Of a stretch of 64,000 nt of DNA, positions 15,338-33,419 are shown piece by piece. Source of the DNA: Halomicroarcula saliterrae (lineage in GTDB: Archaea; Halobacteriota; Halobacteria; Halobacteriales; Haloarculaceae); the NCBI RefSeq assembly GCF_031624395.1, contig NZ_JAMQON010000005.1:124001-188000 (forward strand). The letters run 5' to 3'. Numbering within the stretch: position 1 is the first letter of the stretch; every line of letters starts with the position of its first letter. The notes under the pieces were generated by a model. The model was not told where the DNA came from and did no database searches. It was given only the letters and a program-made list of their open reading frames with translations. The position numbers were made by a program, and so were the translations under genes.

Positions 15338-16513
15338 TCAATAGGTCTCTGGTGGTCGCTCGAGAATCTCGAAGATTTCTTTGGCACGATATTCCTGGTT
15401 TCGTGCCTGACCTGTGACCTCTTCGAGCACGCCGTCGTCCTGCAATGATGCGATAGCACGGTATGCGGTGGAGTGTTCGACATCGAACTGTTCAGCGACA
15501 GTTTGTGCTGTCACGTACGGCTGCTCGAAGAGCCAGCAGGCGAGCTGGTCGGCTGTATAGGCGACGCCGCCATACTGTTGGTCGTACTTCCGACGGAGTT
15601 GTTCGAGTTCGAGTGTCCGGATTACGGACTCCTCGGCCTGGTATCGGACTCCCGTGATGAAAAATTCGAGCCATGCTTCCCACTCACCGGCTTTCCGGAC
15701 TTGCTCCATACGGTCGACGTATGTCTGCTTATTCCGATTGAAATATTCGCTCAGGTAGAGATTCGGTCGTTCGAGATAGTCCTGATCGTATAGCTGCAGG
15801 GTGATGAGGAGTCGGCCGAGCCGACCATTGCTATCGCCATATGGGTGGATTGTCTCGAATTGGTAGTGGAAGAGCGCGATATCGATGAGCGGCTGATAGG
15901 ACCCGCCAGTCCGATAGTAGGTCAGTAGCGTCTCCATCGCGCCGGCTGCGACATCCGGTACCGGTGGGAGGAACTCGCCGATGAAATTGGGTGTGGTCTT
16001 GAACGCGCCGATGGTGTCGGTGTCGACGCGGTCATCCGGAACGCCAGTCAACAGGCGGTCGTGCAGTGAATGGAGAAGATCGATAGACAGTGGCTCATCC
16101 TGGTCGAGCGACTCGATGCCGTCCGCTAGCGCCTGTTCGTAGTTGAGAACCTCTTGAATATCCTTCGTGCTGTCCAGGCGAGGAGCTGTAGACTTCGGGT
16201 CGCCGGTCGAATCTTCAGCTCTCGTCTCGAAACTGTACAGCGCATTGTAGTCAACGTCAGCGCCTTCTATCTCAGCAGATTCGATCGCCTCCTTGCGGAG
16301 CAACGACGTGTACAGCACCGCCGGGAAGTCAACCTCAAGACTCAGCCCGCTGAGTTTCCCGAGCCAGTAGGTCGCATTTGAGAGCGTTTCGTAGAACCCG
16401 TTGTCAAGCACTAGTTCTTGGGCCGGCGGCAACGGATCTGGTTTGTAGTACGGTTGGCGACCGTACGGTACGAGTTCACCCGGTGCCCCATCTTCCAATT
16501 CGTCCACCCACAT
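15338..16513 (-). CDS. Fic-domain protein (AMPylator-type) with winged helix
   Basis: 391 residues. Fic enzymes transfer AMP or similar groups to target proteins. The Fic loop HPYGDSNGRLGR (223-234) keeps the catalytic His, Asp, Asn and Arg residues but has Ser where HPFxxGNGR usually has Gly. An N-terminal inhibitory helix motif SAEIEG (79-84, S/T-xxx-E-G/N) marks it as self-inhibited (class II). A C-terminal winged helix (about 325-385, TAQTVAEQFDVEHSTAYRAI) is common in long Fic proteins. Substrate unknown. It lies beside decayed genes, as toxin-like genes often do. Confidence 0.93.
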   Translation of the reverse strand: MWVDELEDGAPGELVPYGRQPYYKPDPLPPAQELVLDNGFYETLSNATYWLGKLSGLSLEVDFPAVLYTSLLRKEAIESAEIEGADVDYNALYSFETRAEDSTGDPKSTAPRLDSTKDIQEVLNYEQALADGIESLDQDEPLSIDLLHSLHDRLLTGVPDDRVDTDTIGAFKTTPNFIGEFLPPVPDVAAGAMETLLTYYRTGGSYQPLIDIALFHYQFETIHPYGDSNGRLGRLLITLQLYDQDYLERPNLYLSEYFNRNKQTYVDRMEQVRKAGEWEAWLEFFITGVRYQAEESVIRTLELEQLRRKYDQQYGGVAYTADQLACWLFEQPYVTAQTVAEQFDVEHSTAYRAIASLQDDGVLEEVTGQARNQEYRAKEIFEILERPPETY

Positions 16514-27259: not shown

Positions 27260-28828
27260 TCACGTTGCGCCTTCTTGGTCTGGCAGCGCCTTCTGCTTCC
27301 CCTCTAGTTCTTTCTCGGAGAGATGGAAGATACTCTCGAAGGAGGCCTGAACTTCTTCCCCGGTTTCTTCGTCTCTGGCTTCCACAGCGAGAGTGCCGTC
27401 AACGTCGATCTCGAAGGTGACAGTCGCTGTGACACCGCCTCTCGGTTTCGGGTTGCGAATTTCGAGCCGAAGGTTCCCGATATAGGTGTTCTCTTCAGCG
27501 TTGGCGTTATCGTGTACTTCGCCCTGATGGATGCGCACGTTCATGGTTTCCTGCCCGTCGTGAGCGTTCGTATATTCATCGTCGGCGGTGGCCGGAATAG
27601 CCTCGTCCTGTTCGATAAGCGCGTCGAGAGAGCCGTCGGCCAGCTCCACACCGAAGGACTGTGGCACCACTTCAGTCATGAGTACGTTCGAGGCATCTCC
27701 TGGCAGGATATCGGCGATATTCTCTCCGGCAGTTTCACTGATGTCGGCGAACATCGCTGCTCCGATGGCTACTGCTTCGTCGGGATTGACCTTCTTGACC
27801 GGATCCTTCCCGAAGTACTCTCGCGTAGCGTCTTCACACTGAGTCATCCGAGTGCTCCCGCCGACCAGCAAGACGGTATCGACATCATCAGGTGAGTAAT
27901 CTACCCGGTCGAAGAGTCGGTCACAGCAGTCGAGCGTGTTTTCCAGGAGATCGCTCGTCAGCTCTTCAAACTGGTCCCGGGTAAACTCGTTCTCGTAGTT
28001 GTAGCTCTGCTCCGGGACGACGAAAGGAATCGTGATATTTGTGGATTGAGACTGCGAGAGGGAGTGTTTTGCAGTCACCGCAGCGTCACGGACGCGTCCA
28101 TATTGCTCGCGATCTTCTGCGACATCAACACCGGTGTCTTCTTCGATCTGGTCCGTAATCGAGTCGACGATTCGAGAGGTCCAGTCTTCACCGCCGAGGT
28201 CGTGGTCTCCCTCAGTTGACTTCGTTTCGAGGTTGGAATAGTCGCTAGCGATATCCACTAGTGTCGCATCGAACGTTCCCCCACCGAGGTCATAGACGAA
28301 AGCGAGCTCTTCGTCCTCTGCGTCGACTTCCTGCTGGCCCTCTTTGACACCGTAAGCCAGGCAGGCGGCACTGGGTTCTTTTTTGACACCCTCGACCGTT
28401 ACTCCTGCGATTTCGCCAGCGTTCTTGGTTGCCTGGATCTCTTTTTCGGAAAAATATGCAGGGACTGTGATGACGACGGAGTCGACATCTTCACCGAGAT
28501 AATCTTCGGCATCTGCGACTAACTTTTCGATAATGAGTGCTGATACCTGCTGTGGGTCGTAGGACTCGCCGTGCGCTTCGATTTCCCAGCCGTCGTTGTC
28601 CATTTCACGCTTGACCTGTTCGACAGTCTGCTCCGGGTCTGTTATGAGTTTGTTCACCGCCTCTTTGCCAACGACTACCGCTCCTTCGTCGGTAAAAGAA
28701 ACTACAGATCGAGTGGTCCGGTTGCCGCTGCTGTTGGGAATAATCTCCGGTTCGTTCATCGTTAGAACTGCCATCGCACTGTTCGTCGTCCCGAGGTCAA
28801 TGCCGACTGTTCGGCTTCTATCAGACAT
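27260..28828 (-). CDS. Lidless Hsp70 (DnaK-like) ATPase
   Basis: 522 residues against about 600-640 for DnaK. The nucleotide-binding domain is complete: GIDLGTTNSAMAV (phosphate 1), VYDLGGGTFDATLV (phosphate 2), VLLVGGSTRM (adenosine). A substrate-binding beta domain follows (SFGVELADGS...RLEIRNPKPRGGV...FEIDVDGTLAVEARD). The protein stops right after it, with no alpha-helical lid. The interdomain linker, normally VLLLDVTPLSLG, reads VLMTEVVPQSFG. It should bind ATP but hold clients weakly. It stands apart from any dnaK-grpE-dnaJ operon and heads a one-strand island with J-like, actin-like and zinc-array proteins. Confidence 0.92.
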   Translation of the reverse strand: MSDRSRTVGIDLGTTNSAMAVLTMNEPEIIPNSSGNRTTRSVVSFTDEGAVVVGKEAVNKLITDPEQTVEQVKREMDNDGWEIEAHGESYDPQQVSALIIEKLVADAEDYLGEDVDSVVITVPAYFSEKEIQATKNAGEIAGVTVEGVKKEPSAACLAYGVKEGQQEVDAEDEELAFVYDLGGGTFDATLVDIASDYSNLETKSTEGDHDLGGEDWTSRIVDSITDQIEEDTGVDVAEDREQYGRVRDAAVTAKHSLSQSQSTNITIPFVVPEQSYNYENEFTRDQFEELTSDLLENTLDCCDRLFDRVDYSPDDVDTVLLVGGSTRMTQCEDATREYFGKDPVKKVNPDEAVAIGAAMFADISETAGENIADILPGDASNVLMTEVVPQSFGVELADGSLDALIEQDEAIPATADDEYTNAHDGQETMNVRIHQGEVHDNANAEENTYIGNLRLEIRNPKPRGGVTATVTFEIDVDGTLAVEARDEETGEEVQASFESIFHLSEKELEGKQKALPDQEGAT

Positions 28829-29063: not shown

Positions 29064-30578
29064 TCAATCTCGAACGTAATCGACCCCTCGCACCACCTCT
29101 GTGAGAACGAACAGCCCCGCTCCAGCTATCAGCATTATCTGTATCGTGAATTCGAGCGTGGAAGGCAAGCCTGTGTTCTGCCAGATCCTGATAAATTCCT
29201 CACCGATCTCGGTCCAATACATGTTGAATAGTAGCACGTGAGCGCTGCCGATTGCTGTAGTGGTTGCTGCTAACCAGACAGCAACTGACGTGAAGAACAA
29301 CCGGTCTAACGAAACTGTGACGACACGCGCTAAAAAGAACAAAGCGAACAGACCTCCCAGCACACTCGTCTCTAGCGTTTCTGGGGCGATTGTACGGAGG
29401 TCTCCAAAGAAATAGAGGAGAGGGACGAGTGGTACCGCAACTAGGGACCATCGGAGGGCGATATGTCTCTGGGAGCCCAACTCGTCAGTGTCGTCTCCAT
29501 CAAATACACTCAGGCCGACTTCGTAGATGAACAGCCCGATGGCGCCGGTGAGCCAGACAATTCCGACACCCAGCAGCACCAAGCTGCCGTTGTAAATGTC
29601 GCTTCCAAGCCCGCCGGTCACTGCGATAGATATCGGTGTTAGTAATTCGACGAACCAGTTCAATATTCCGTAGAAGAACGAGATGATCGCTCCAGCTATG
29701 AGCATAATAACTGCCAAAACAACCCACACTAATTGGCCGATAACGACGCCGATACCGATACCGATTCCTCCGACACCATCAGAAACGAGTGCCATCAAAT
29801 GACTCGTTACCGCTGTTTGAGCTGTTAGTTCGACGGAATCTGTCCCGTTGTCCTCGCTCTCGTCGAATCCTGATGCCGTTTTGTCTTCATTCGAACCCGC
29901 GGACTGCGTTGTCGAACTCTCCCAACCACCCGTAGAATCTCGACCGGATGTCTCCCCCTGCGAATACGCGGTCCCAGAAGTTGAGGACGTCCCACCTTGC
30001 GAGTACGAGGTACTAGAAGCTGAAGTAGAACGTTCAGAACCCGTGTCTGTCGACGCCTCCGATTCGCGTGTCGAGCCGCCACGACTTTTTCCACTGTTAG
30101 TCTCCGATGTAGAACCGGACGAGGAGTCGTTCGAAGAACTCGATTTCCCCGGTGACGATGTGTCGTATTTGTATCTGGAACTGTCCGTCGTGTCCGTTTC
30201 TGACTCTGTCTGTGAGGTCGACTCCGACGCTGAACTGTCCCCATCTTCGATTCTTAACCACGCGTTCGGCGATAGTGTCGTTTCACTCTTTTGCCAATTT
30301 TCGTAGGCATCGGCCCGGGAACTGGGAACTGCCCGGTGGAAGATATCGTACTGTTCTCTTAGCTCCGGGTCTGTGAGTACCTCTCTCGCATCTTTGACTC
30401 GCTGTATCTGTGCACTTATGTCGCTCTCATCGCCTGTTCTCGCGCGGATTTGGTACTCACGGTAGACAGCATCTGCAGCGTTTTGCAGTTCCTCTGCGCT
30501 GAAATCTGGAGCGGCTGCTATCCGGGAATAGTAATCTCCCGCGTTCGGTGTGGCATCTTCGACGTCTATCCGGTCCAT
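29064..30578 (-). CDS. Membrane protein with N-terminal J-like domain lacking HPD
   Basis: 504 residues. The N-terminus (DYYSRIAAAPDFSAEELQ, then VKDAREVLTDPELREQYD) has the helices of a J-domain, ending in the usual L-x-D-x-x-x-R-x-x-YD pattern. The HPD loop that stimulates Hsp70 ATPase is replaced by RTGDES. A Ser/Thr/Gly-rich linker of about 130 residues (108-240) follows, then about seven hydrophobic helices (about 255-500). The J-like end is probably cytoplasmic, though topology is not certain. It is the likely membrane partner of the Hsp70-like protein. A perfect dyad sits just before its start. Confidence 0.85.
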   Translation of the reverse strand: MDRIDVEDATPNAGDYYSRIAAAPDFSAEELQNAADAVYREYQIRARTGDESDISAQIQRVKDAREVLTDPELREQYDIFHRAVPSSRADAYENWQKSETTLSPNAWLRIEDGDSSASESTSQTESETDTTDSSRYKYDTSSPGKSSSSNDSSSGSTSETNSGKSRGGSTRESEASTDTGSERSTSASSTSYSQGGTSSTSGTAYSQGETSGRDSTGGWESSTTQSAGSNEDKTASGFDESEDNGTDSVELTAQTAVTSHLMALVSDGVGGIGIGIGVVIGQLVWVVLAVIMLIAGAIISFFYGILNWFVELLTPISIAVTGGLGSDIYNGSLVLLGVGIVWLTGAIGLFIYEVGLSVFDGDDTDELGSQRHIALRWSLVAVPLVPLLYFFGDLRTIAPETLETSVLGGLFALFFLARVVTVSLDRLFFTSVAVWLAATTTAIGSAHVLLFNMYWTEIGEEFIRIWQNTGLPSTLEFTIQIMLIAGAGLFVLTEVVRGVDYVRD

Positions 30579-30954: not shown

Positions 30955-32157
30955 CTACTGAATTTTGATATTTGACTTCGTATGGCCCACCTCGGAATTC
31001 GCTAACGCAGATGCGCCATGAGAGGGGAGTGTTTTTCCACCGAATCCGCCGGTGATTCTGACTTTCGCATTTGAATCCACAGTTTCGTTCGGGTTACTCA
31101 TAGTGCCCCAGTCAGCTCCCTGTGTACTCCACCAGTGTAACACCGGAACCGTTCGGGCTGGAAACCCGCCAGTAATCACTATATCGATATCTTCCAACGA
31201 GTCAAGCCCGGCAGATGACAGGGCCTCCTGGATCCGATCGTTGTATCCCTCCATCCGTAACGACGCGTACCGCTGGAACGTCGATGAAGAGATGGTGAGC
31301 ACTTCACCACCTGCCCCGGTAAACACTTCTGGAATCCTGATTTGAACTGTTTCGTCCCCTTTTGTGAGCAGTTGCTCGATACTCTTCGACAGTTCTCTCT
31401 CCAGAACGACCTCTAGAGCCTGCAGTTCGTGTGAGGGAACATCGAAATCTTTCGTCTTCAATAACTGGCTGACAAACCCGCGTTCCCACGTTTGTTTGAA
31501 CGCGCTAGCTTCCAGCGATAACTGACGATACTGACTGTGGTCGACCGAGATTACTGCAGCATCGATGAATGTGGCACCCATGTCGACGGTAAGAAGTACT
31601 GCGCCCTCTCGCGGGTTCTGCGAGTAGTGTGGGTCTTTGATTCGGTGGTGTTCCCAGTATCCGATTGCGGTCGCGACTGGTGAACTGAGACGACAGACGA
31701 CATCGAAGCCAGCGTCCCGGAGGAACTCTTCCAGTAAATCCCTGTTTGTCTCGTCAATCCACGGGCGAAACGGGATCGCAATACGCCCCTCCCAGCCGTC
31801 GACATCCGTCTCGATGCGGGTATACAGGTGCTCGAAGAACTCCCGTCGGACGGCCCCTGGCTGCCCGTGATCTAGCGGTGGCAACTTTCCGTCCCGGGTT
31901 TCCTTGCTGATCATAAACGGGGTCAGTATATCGACCACGTCGGCTCCCCGGTCCAGGAGCTCTCCCGCCTGAGTGCCAGCGGCGATCTCCTCGCCAAGTA
32001 TGGCCCCCTCCGTTGGGACCAGTAACTTCCCATCGGACCCTGTGATAGTAATCATGCCAGAGTTGTCGGGTTCGAGCCCTCCAAGGTACGTTACTGAGCT
32101 TCCGATATCGACACCAATAACGGGGTCCTTATCCGCTTCGCCGAGCCCGAAAATCAT
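30955..32157 (-). CDS. Actin/Hsp70-fold ATPase
   Basis: 400 residues from the ATG at 32157. That start is preceded by a gggagg sequence, whereas the ATG at 32184 is not. The ATPase motifs are visible: VIGVDIGSSVTYLGGL (phosphate 1), LLTVDMGATFIDAAVI (phosphate 2) and IDIVITGGFPARTVP (adenosine). There is no peptide-binding domain, so this is an actin-like or Hsp70-NBD-like ATPase, not a chaperone. It could polymerise or act as a switch. It shares strand and AT-rich composition with the Hsp70-like and J-like genes downstream. Confidence 0.85.
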   Translation of the reverse strand: MIFGLGEADKDPVIGVDIGSSVTYLGGLEPDNSGMITITGSDGKLLVPTEGAILGEEIAAGTQAGELLDRGADVVDILTPFMISKETRDGKLPPLDHGQPGAVRREFFEHLYTRIETDVDGWEGRIAIPFRPWIDETNRDLLEEFLRDAGFDVVCRLSSPVATAIGYWEHHRIKDPHYSQNPREGAVLLTVDMGATFIDAAVISVDHSQYRQLSLEASAFKQTWERGFVSQLLKTKDFDVPSHELQALEVVLERELSKSIEQLLTKGDETVQIRIPEVFTGAGGEVLTISSSTFQRYASLRMEGYNDRIQEALSSAGLDSLEDIDIVITGGFPARTVPVLHWWSTQGADWGTMSNPNETVDSNAKVRITGGFGGKTLPSHGASALANSEVGHTKSNIKIQ

Positions 32158-32345
32158 ACCTGCCTCCCGGTGGCCCCGGTCCATCTCTGGACCACCCCCC
32201 TGATTGAACTCCGCAACGAAAGGAGGTGTTTGCCGGCCAAGGTGGTCTGAATTTGCGTGTTGAACGTGTCTGTGTTGATAGCTTTCATGTGGCGGTATTA
32301 GTCCGTGGTTCGTTGGTTCACGTGTGAGTCAAACGGCTGGTGACG

Positions 32346-33419
32346 CTAGAGGAGGAACTGGTAGACACCGACTCCGAGAAGGAGCAATAGCGCTCCACCT
32401 ATCACCCACGGAACCAGATTTCGGGCTCCGGATTTTGGATACGACTGGGCTCTAACTGACCCCTCTACGTCGTACAGTTCCCACTCTTCATCGCCGTAGC
32501 TGTAGTCGATACGGGTAGCATCGACGTGGCGCCGCTCTGTTTGCGTCCGAACGACGGTTTCGGTGTCCAGTTCTGCGACGTCGTTCCATGTCTCTTCTGT
32601 CTTGAATTTCGTCCCCCTTTCGCGAGTTATGTATTTTTCCGGAACACCGATGTCACTCAGTCCTTTCTCCGAGGTTTCAGTTTCAAATTCCACGCTTCCC
32701 ACATCAGCTGTAACCAGTTCACACTCCCCCTGACAGACCCCACAGACGACGATCGTCGTCCCGCCACAGGTCCCGCAGGTGACAGTCCCACCTCCGCCAC
32801 AGTTCGTGCATCGATGTTCACCGGAACCACTGCAACTGTTACACATCACGTGGCGGTCGCCGTTACAGGTCGCACAGGTTCGCTTCTCGTCCCCGTGGCC
32901 ACGCGTGCCAGAGGCGCCACAGTCCGGACAGCCGATCTGCCCTTTCGGTCCGGTACTCGTGTACCCCGAGCAGTTGCTACACGACTCCATTCCGTTGCCG
33001 TTACACGTCCCACAGCTAACTTTGCCGTTTGAACAGGTCGAACACCGCGTTTCTCCGGCACCGGAACATTCGTGGCACGTATCGACACTGTCCGGTTTAC
33101 AGACGTACTCGACCGTCGTGTCAGGAAATTCTGACCTTGCAAGGTCGTATCTGTCCTCGAACGACGTTCGATTATTTACTGCTGCGTCGTATTCGCTCGG
33201 AGGTGTTCTGATCGTTTCTCGGTTTTCGACGGCCGTGATTTCCTTGACGATATGTTTCTCACACCGCTCTGGAGTTACGTCACTAACTGTCGCCCGGTCG
33301 GTGAAATCGTTCGGGCGCTTCCAGCTATCACCGAACTCCCTGACGGCAGCCCTTGCGGATTGGGCCTGATTCGGGTCGTCGCCAGCCGTCCCACGGTCTT
33401 GTGCAGTTGATTTTGTCAT
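32346..33419 (-). CDS. Membrane-anchored zinc-array protein with ten CxxC motifs
   Basis: 357 residues. From about 114 to 232, ten CxxC motifs occur with Gly-rich spacing (CHECSGAGETRCSTC, CGTCNGNGMESCSNC, CPDCGASG, CATCNGD, CNSCSGSG, CTNCGGGG, CGTCGG, CGVCQG). This is the CxxCxGxG style of the DnaJ zinc finger, but 2.5 times its four repeats and without a J-domain. A charged domain follows, and one C-terminal hydrophobic helix (about 335-357) anchors it as a tail-anchored protein. It may supply in trans the zinc-finger function missing from the J-like protein of the same island. Confidence 0.85.
   Translation of the reverse strand: MTKSTAQDRGTAGDDPNQAQSARAAVREFGDSWKRPNDFTDRATVSDVTPERCEKHIVKEITAVENRETIRTPPSEYDAAVNNRTSFEDRYDLARSEFPDTTVEYVCKPDSVDTCHECSGAGETRCSTCSNGKVSCGTCNGNGMESCSNCSGYTSTGPKGQIGCPDCGASGTRGHGDEKRTCATCNGDRHVMCNSCSGSGEHRCTNCGGGGTVTCGTCGGTTIVVCGVCQGECELVTADVGSVEFETETSEKGLSDIGVPEKYITRERGTKFKTEETWNDVAELDTETVVRTQTERRHVDATRIDYSYGDEEWELYDVEGSVRAQSYPKSGARNLVPWVIGGALLLLLGVGVYQFLL

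What the first reader, a model, noticed from the sequence alone, without database searches (positions are those of the whole stretch)
32346..33419. Tail-anchored zinc array with ten CxxC motifs
DnaJ zinc fingers have four CxxCxGxG motifs. This protein has ten, no J-domain, and a C-terminal membrane helix. It may be a stand-alone client- or thiol-binding partner of the island.
Basis: seen in the sequence. Interest (0 to 1): 0.5.

Follow-up and report, generated by a model that had tools for sequence, protein, structure and literature searches.

The report
Membrane-anchored zinc ladder beside Hsp70 genes
This salt-loving archaeon carries a membrane-anchored protein whose ten cysteine pairs probably fold into a long zinc-stapled hairpin, an extended version of the zinc part of the chaperone helper DnaJ, encoded next to a spare Hsp70 chaperone set with which it probably works.

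Summary
The 357-aa ORF at 32346-33419 (-) has ten CxxC motifs, no J-domain and one C-terminal hydrophobic helix. It is single-copy and rare: 5 of 146 genomes of its family, 22 of 392 of its order. It is not simply stand-alone: one relative fuses it to a degenerate J-domain, loci in two genera carry it with a membrane J-protein and a short DnaK, and four other loci pair it with the window's orphan Hsp70-ATPase-like gene.

New here: across 23 relatives the motif number varies from 4 to 20 but is even (20 of 23 by strict CxxC; 23 of 23 if one in-register CxC is allowed in three), and loop lengths read nearly the same from either end (0 of 20,000 permutations as symmetric). Three arrays found later, one bacterial, obey it too (P 0.00075). 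This predicts nested pairing, motif i with motif n+1-i: a hairpin ladder of which DnaJ's zinc domain is the two-rung case. The window protein would have five zinc rungs.

AlphaFold was uninformative (pLDDT 37-40); zinc, client and thiol binding are untested. Best reading: the client-binding half of a split, membrane-bound J-protein system; moderately likely. A new variant of a known kind.

The parts
32346..33419 (-). zinc-ladder protein, 357 aa: N-flank (1-114), ten-CxxC array (115-229), C-flank (230-331), C-terminal TM helix
   Evidence: homologues
32733..33077 (-). array of ten CxxC (residues 115-229); predicted rungs 115/226, 126/215, 136/204, 147/193, 164/182 (first residue of each paired motif)
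   Evidence: motifs; pairing inferred from even number and mirror-symmetric loops
32352..32420 (-). C-terminal hydrophobic helix (tail anchor), residues about 334-356
   Evidence: hydropathy; a last C-terminal segment also in several relatives
30955..32184 (-). orphan Hsp70-ATPase-like protein (no substrate-binding domain), 409 aa
   Evidence: profile A2 hits Hsp70 ATPase domains in PDB (best E 3e-4) and DnaK genes (E about 1e-8)
29064..30578 (-). membrane protein with N-terminal J-like domain lacking HPD and about six hydrophobic segments, 504 aa
   Evidence: Pfam DnaJ E 0.0022, below cut-off; no HPD, hydrophobic segments
27260..28828 (-). short DnaK-type Hsp70, 522 aa, lacking the C-terminal lid
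   Evidence: Pfam HSP70 E 7.6e-129, profile 2-509 of 599; second Hsp70 of the genome
33901..34629 (-). 242-aa protein of unknown function upstream on the same strand; membership of the module uncertain
   Evidence: no family above a cut-off; no relative in the other ladder loci searched

Best explanation
The protein is a membrane-anchored, J-domain-less relative of the DnaJ zinc (CR) domain in which the two-zinc hairpin of DnaJ has been lengthened to a ladder. Motif i and motif n+1-i share one zinc, so ten motifs make five rungs; the two flanks meet at the base of the hairpin and the C-terminal helix anchors it in the membrane, with the array most likely on the cytoplasmic side. It works as the client-binding (holdase-like) half of a split J-protein: a separate membrane protein supplies the J or J-like domain, and a short DnaK and/or an Hsp70-ATPase-like partner supply the ATP-driven step, concentrating chaperone action at the membrane. 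Shown: motifs, helix, homology, even number, mirror symmetry, gene fusion and neighbourhoods. Inferred: zinc, pairing, topology, client binding, contact with Hsp70.
For: Ladder: 23 arrays with 4 to 20 motifs, even in 20 of 23 by strict non-overlapping CxxC and in 23 of 23 if one in-register C-x-C is allowed in L041, L042, L048. Summed loop asymmetry over 17 distinct patterns is 27 against 150 expected, reached by 0 of 20,000 permutations, and 101 expected with the central loop held fixed, also 0 of 20,000. Equal motif numbers outside the first and last wide loop in 16 of 17 discovery patterns, the exception being the window (4/5; its widest loop is still central). L046 (8-4-8) and L044 (7-4-7) differ by one motif in each arm. 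Three arrays found later and not from discovery lineages (L085, L086 from another class; L133 from a bacterium): asymmetry 1 against 47 expected, P 0.00075. DnaJ itself pairs this way: the dZn1 mutant of motifs 1 and 4 (C147, C150, C200, C203) holds one zinc instead of two (passages of PMC8262869). Profile A1 finds BSD2 and the DnaJ zinc domain in the PDB (E 1.8e-6, 6.5e-6). Hsp70 link: J-like domain fused in L009 (TIGR02349 E 3.1e-10); J hits within 5 kb in 6 of 23 genomes, 0.33 expected; 4 of 17 genera, P 2.3e-4; whole module ladder + p157 + p222 + HPD J-membrane protein + short DnaK in L043 and again in L130, a locus found by DNA pattern alone; Hsp70-ATPase-like gene in 3 of 392 genomes, each time beside the ladder gene, plus L059 (frame broken) and L129.
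Against: 13 of 23 discovery loci have no J or Hsp70-type gene within about 5 kb, so the partnership is not obligatory in cis. The window's own J-like protein lacks HPD and its Pfam score is below cut-off. The plastid J-less zinc protein ZnJ2 did not synergise with DnaK/DnaJ/GrpE (abstract of PMC5818400). Both AlphaFold models are uninformative (pLDDT 37.5 and 40.0), so no structural confirmation of pairing. The window's own array is less symmetric than most (asymmetry 7, P 0.22 alone). PF00684 lands on the four central motifs in L086 but on non-central motifs in L049 and L046. Outside the array no similarity to DnaJ's C-terminal domains was found.
Confidence: 0.5

Rival explanations
1. An Hsp70-independent membrane thiol-redox holdase, like the plastid zinc proteins ZnJ6 and LQY1: it holds or oxidises membrane or exported clients by itself, and the Hsp70 neighbours are only another part of a stress island.
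For: ZnJ6 is membrane-bound, zinc-binding, holds clients and has oxidising activity (abstract); 13 of 23 loci lack Hsp70-type neighbours.
Against: Fusion to a J-like domain and J enrichment near the gene; the DnaK/J module recurs in two genera; a ladder with many structural zincs is not obviously a redox design.
Confidence: 0.25
2. A zinc or redox sensor or store: the array loads and unloads zinc and reports to membrane or transcription domains.
For: Some long-array relatives end in a PadR-like winged helix (L046, Pfam E 6.6e-8, above cut-off) and one has an N-terminal TBP-like match (L054, 23.7 bits against cut-off 22.9).
Against: The window protein and its close relatives have no such domain; the arm symmetry fits a structural rod better than a store; the recurrent neighbours are chaperones, not metal transporters.
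Confidence: 0.12
3. A string of independent zinc ribbons with neighbouring motifs paired (1+2, 3+4), acting as a binding array for many partners.
For: Neighbouring motifs are evenly spaced (7-residue loops), and even numbers also follow from sequential pairing.
Against: Sequential pairing does not predict mirror symmetry or equal arms; wide loops fall at odd and even positions alike (19 and 17); mirror symmetry beats tandem symmetry in 10 of 11 arrays with more than one wide loop, a tie in the window's.
Confidence: 0.1

Closest known systems
DnaJ / type A J-domain proteins, zinc (CR) domain, Pfam PF00684
   Same: CxxCxGxG motifs, four Cys per zinc, motif 1 paired with 4 (dZn1 mutant, PMC8262869); profile match to 1exk and Ydj1; hhalign to haloarchaeal DnaJ over the zinc region, E 2.4e-9.
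   Different: No J-domain, no recognisable C-terminal domains, 4 to 20 motifs in the family instead of four, membrane anchor.
Plastid J-less DnaJ-like zinc chaperones (BSD2, ZnJ2, ZnJ6, LQY1, ORANGE, FIP)
   Same: Zinc domain without the rest of DnaJ; ZnJ6 and FIP are thylakoid-membrane proteins (abstracts).
   Different: Four motifs in ZnJ2 and ZnJ6 (abstracts); plastid; ZnJ2 not synergistic with DnaK.
Anti-TRAP (RtpA)
   Same: Weak profile match over a motif pair (E 0.049; L086 E 6.8e-10).
   Different: Small soluble regulator with one zinc site per chain (recalled); not a membrane protein.

Membership tests
DnaJ / type A J-domain protein | N-terminal J-domain with HPD | tested here: not met
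   none in the window protein; a degenerate J-like domain is fused in relative L009 only
DnaJ / type A J-domain protein | cysteine-rich zinc domain of CxxCxGxG motifs | tested here: met
   profile hits to 1exk 6.5e-6 and Ydj1 2.7e-4; hhalign E 2.4e-9; but PF00684 itself does not hit the window protein at E<=1
DnaJ / type A J-domain protein | C-terminal peptide-binding domains CTD I and II | tested here: not met
   hhalign aligns only 65 zinc-region columns; a remote structural likeness is not excluded
plastid J-less zinc chaperones (DnaJE type) | zinc domain without J-domain | tested here: met
   (BSD2 E 1.8e-6)
plastid J-less zinc chaperones (DnaJE type) | four motifs, two zincs | tested here: not met
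   ten motifs
plastid J-less zinc chaperones (DnaJE type) | holdase or oxidising activity | not testable with these tools
   needs purified protein
Hsp70 partner system (island) | genetic linkage to J-domain and Hsp70 genes beyond chance | tested here: met
   6 of 23 genomes against 0.33 expected; 4 of 17 genera, P 2.3e-4
known anti-phage defence system | match to a PADLOC model | tested here: not met
   0 families for the ladder protein and for three neighbours, one pAgo match at E 0.028 for the Hsp70

The most novel reading that the evidence does not exclude
A split, membrane-assembled J-protein machine: the J-domain and the client-binding part sit on two membrane proteins, and the client-binding part is a zinc ladder whose length evolves by adding one motif to each arm at a time (two to ten rungs), so that zinc rungs act as a modular ruler that sets how far the chaperone reaches from the membrane.
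Probability: 0.35. Interest if true: 0.75.

Novelty: new variant of a known kind. Interest (0 to 1): 0.6.

Why it matters
It would turn the DnaJ zinc domain from a fixed two-zinc module into the smallest member of a length-variable ladder, with a simple rule (even number, mirror-symmetric loops) that predicts metal stoichiometry and pairing from sequence. It would also show a J-protein whose J-domain and client-binding part are separate membrane proteins, which makes the question of what the zinc domain does without the J-domain testable in tractable haloarchaea.

Tried and rejected
AlphaFold2 of the whole protein with a three-row alignment (pLDDT 37.5) and of the array of relative L059 with two other rows (pLDDT 40.0): too poor to use, so no fold search was run. 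Viral contigs: no relative; phage records: one match covering 19% of the query on one unannotated record. Known defence system: rejected. PgfA-like C-terminus: NF053601 hit one relative (L130, E 1.8e-4) but 0 of 9 members of A5, and PMC9678360 mentions neither zinc nor DnaJ: treated as chance. Other short-DnaK islands (L070-L074) carry no ladder gene. The Halobacterium salinarum PHS2 array (L083, 12 motifs, asymmetry 9, P 0.27) lies beside an ISH6 transposase and lacks the N-flank; it was judged truncated and left out of the symmetry counts. Streptomyces arrays L131 and L132 have variant ligands and do not fit the strict motif count (7 CxxC); they were also left out, and count against the rule if taken at face value. 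L126 and L127 (18 motifs each) repeat the L044 lineage and were not counted again. Eleven weak genome hits at E of about 1e-7 to 1e-6 were dropped from the family count as DnaJ; eight of these loci were read and all are DnaJ with HPD and four motifs, the other three were not read. The gene caller missed most island genes and was replaced. In one search the central loop of L085 was typed as 29; one search computed 27; being central it does not change the result.

Full report
OBSERVATION. The ORF at 32346-33419 (-) codes for 357 aa with ten CxxC motifs at residues 115 to 229 and a single hydrophobic segment at the very C-terminus. Shuffles of the protein gave a mean of 1.4 and at most 8 such motifs in 10,000. 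There is no J-domain and no family above a cut-off in Pfam, NCBIfam or PADLOC. The protein is single-copy in its genome.

FAMILY. With the window protein alone, 5 of 146 genomes of the family have a match. With a five-row profile (A1), 33 of 392 genomes of the order match at E<=1e-6; eleven of these match only at E of about 1e-7 to 1e-6 and were taken as DnaJ (eight read and confirmed), leaving 22 of 392. A sample of 392 genomes of the phylum gave 10 with a match at E<=1e-8, two of them outside the order. Plasmid records with a match are Halobacterium salinarum and Halobaculum; a tblastn with relative L054 reached Streptomyces and Methylorubrum plasmids. The ten-motif and the sixteen-motif subfamilies align over their whole length, flanks included (hhalign E 2.9e-26), so they are one family despite different motif numbers. 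Against haloarchaeal DnaJ only the zinc region aligns (E 2.4e-9). In the PDB the profile finds BSD2 (1.8e-6), the E. coli DnaJ zinc domain (6.5e-6) and Ydj1 (2.7e-4). PF00684 passes its cut-off in two of ten relatives scanned, L049 and L086.

THE EVEN, MIRROR-SYMMETRIC RULE. In 23 arrays (the window, G092 and 21 other order hits; one per genome) the number of motifs ranges from 4 to 20. Strict non-overlapping CxxC gives an even number in 20 of 23; the three odd ones (L041, L042, L048) each have one C-x-C in register, which makes 23 of 23 even. The loops between motifs are mostly seven residues, with a few wide ones, and the order of loop lengths is close to a palindrome: for example 7,7,11,13,14,13,11,7,7 (L049) and 7,7,7,7,13,7,6,7,13,7,7,7,7 (L047). 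Collapsed to 17 distinct patterns, total asymmetry is 27; permuting loops within each array gives 150 on average and never as little as 27 in 20,000 trials; holding the central loop fixed gives 101 on average and again none. The number of motifs before the first wide loop equals that after the last in 16 of 17 of these patterns; the exception is the window itself (4 and 5), where a six-residue insertion widens a second loop, though its widest loop is central (five motifs on each side). L046 (8-4-8) and its relative L044 (7-4-7) differ by one motif in each arm. The pattern is palindromic rather than tandem in 10 of 11 arrays with more than one wide loop, with a tie for the window. The collapsed patterns are still related by descent, so the permutation figures overstate independence.

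TEST ON LATER ARRAYS. Seven more arrays were scored after the rule was formed: L085, L086, L133, L125, L128, L129, L130. All are even and have equal arms. Four belong to lineages already seen. The three that do not (L085 and L086 from another class of the phylum, L133 from Methylorubrum extorquens AM1) have a summed asymmetry of 1 against 47 expected, P 0.00075. L086 is a small protein with a putative lipoprotein signal (by eye) and loops 7,7,15,24,15,7,7. Not scored: the truncated L083, the ligand-variant Streptomyces L131 and L132, and the near-duplicates L126 and L127.

WHAT THE RULE MEANS. Even numbers say that motifs are used in pairs, as expected if two CxxC hold one zinc. Mirror symmetry and equal arms say that the pair is motif i with motif n+1-i, that is, a hairpin. 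DnaJ already does this with four motifs: in Salmonella DnaJ the quadruple mutant of C147, C150, C200 and C203 (motifs 1 and 4) is the Zn1 knock-out and holds one zinc instead of two (passages of PMC8262869). The window protein would therefore be a five-rung ladder. This is an inference; both structure predictions failed, and the place of the PF00684 match is central in L086 but not in L049 or L046.

THE ISLAND. Downstream on the same strand lie an Hsp70-ATPase-like gene (30955-32184), a membrane protein with a J-like domain without HPD (29064-30578) and a short DnaK (27260-28828). The stretch 27-35 kb has GC 0.51-0.57 against about 0.59-0.67 in most of the flanking kilobases, in keeping with horizontal acquisition. 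The Hsp70-ATPase-like family has true members in 3 of 392 genomes of the order (E<1e-148), all three next to a ladder gene, and its next hits are DnaK genes; two further loci, L059 (frame broken) and L129, repeat the pair, with a 4-bp gene overlap in L006, L040, L059 and L129.

LINK TO J-DOMAINS. In L009 the array is fused behind a J-like domain without HPD and several membrane segments. In L043 a ladder gene lies with p157, p222, an HPD J-domain membrane protein and a short DnaK; the same five genes recur in L130, which was found by a DNA pattern for the motifs and not by its neighbours. In L050, L052 and L055 a double-J protein with a C-terminal membrane helix is convergent with the ladder gene, whose product has no helix; in L056 and L057 a small J-like protein is adjacent. 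Of 23 genomes, 6 have a J hit (E<=1e-3) within 5 kb, 0.33 expected from 123 hits; by genus 4 of 17, P 2.3e-4. Counting sub-threshold J-like and Hsp70-ATPase-like genes, 10 of 23 discovery loci have such a neighbour and 13 do not.

MECHANISM. The best-supported reading is a split J-protein at the membrane: the ladder supplies client binding, as the DnaJ zinc domain does together with DnaK (introduction passage of PMC8262869), and the J or J-like membrane protein and the Hsp70s supply the cycle. The J-like protein of the window lacks HPD, so in this genome it may recruit rather than stimulate. A plastid precedent warns against overreach: ZnJ2, J-less, does not synergise with DnaK (abstract of PMC5818400; one results section also read), while ZnJ6 is a membrane holdase with oxidising activity (abstract of PMC7865324). 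Some long-array relatives carry a PadR-like winged helix or a TBP-like stretch, so parts of the family may do regulation.

NOVELTY. Nine literature searches of the open-access library listed no paper that by title or abstract start concerns DnaJ-type arrays of more than four motifs or a haloarchaeal membrane-bound J-less zinc protein; I read abstracts, passages and one section only, and subscription journals are mostly not held. The zinc domain is a known kind; the ladder and the split arrangement are a new variant.

Noticed in passing
window 30955-32184: Orphan Hsp70-ATPase-like family found in only 3 of 392 genomes of the order, each time beside a ladder gene; by eye the first phosphate loop looks degenerate in L006 and L040 but not in the window.
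   Followed up: partly
L046 8015-10468; L125 6125-8542: Long ladder proteins with several membrane helices that end in a PadR-like winged helix (Pfam above cut-off in L046, below in L125): possible membrane-tethered regulators.
   Followed up: partly
L054 8136-9911: Sixteen-motif ladder protein with an N-terminal TBP-like Pfam match just above cut-off.
   Followed up: no
L086 8885-9343: 152-aa protein, little more than an eight-motif palindromic array with a putative lipoprotein signal, in another class of the phylum.
   Followed up: partly
L070, L071, L072, L073, L074: Other short-DnaK islands in haloarchaea without a ladder gene; L070 has a J-domain gene nearby.
   Followed up: partly
L083 5866-6888 (Halobacterium salinarum R1 plasmid PHS2): Unannotated array of twelve motifs without the N-flank, beside an ISH6 transposase.
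   Followed up: no
window 15338-16513: Fic-domain protein with a winged-helix-like C-terminus (Pfam Fic_N, Fic).
   Followed up: no
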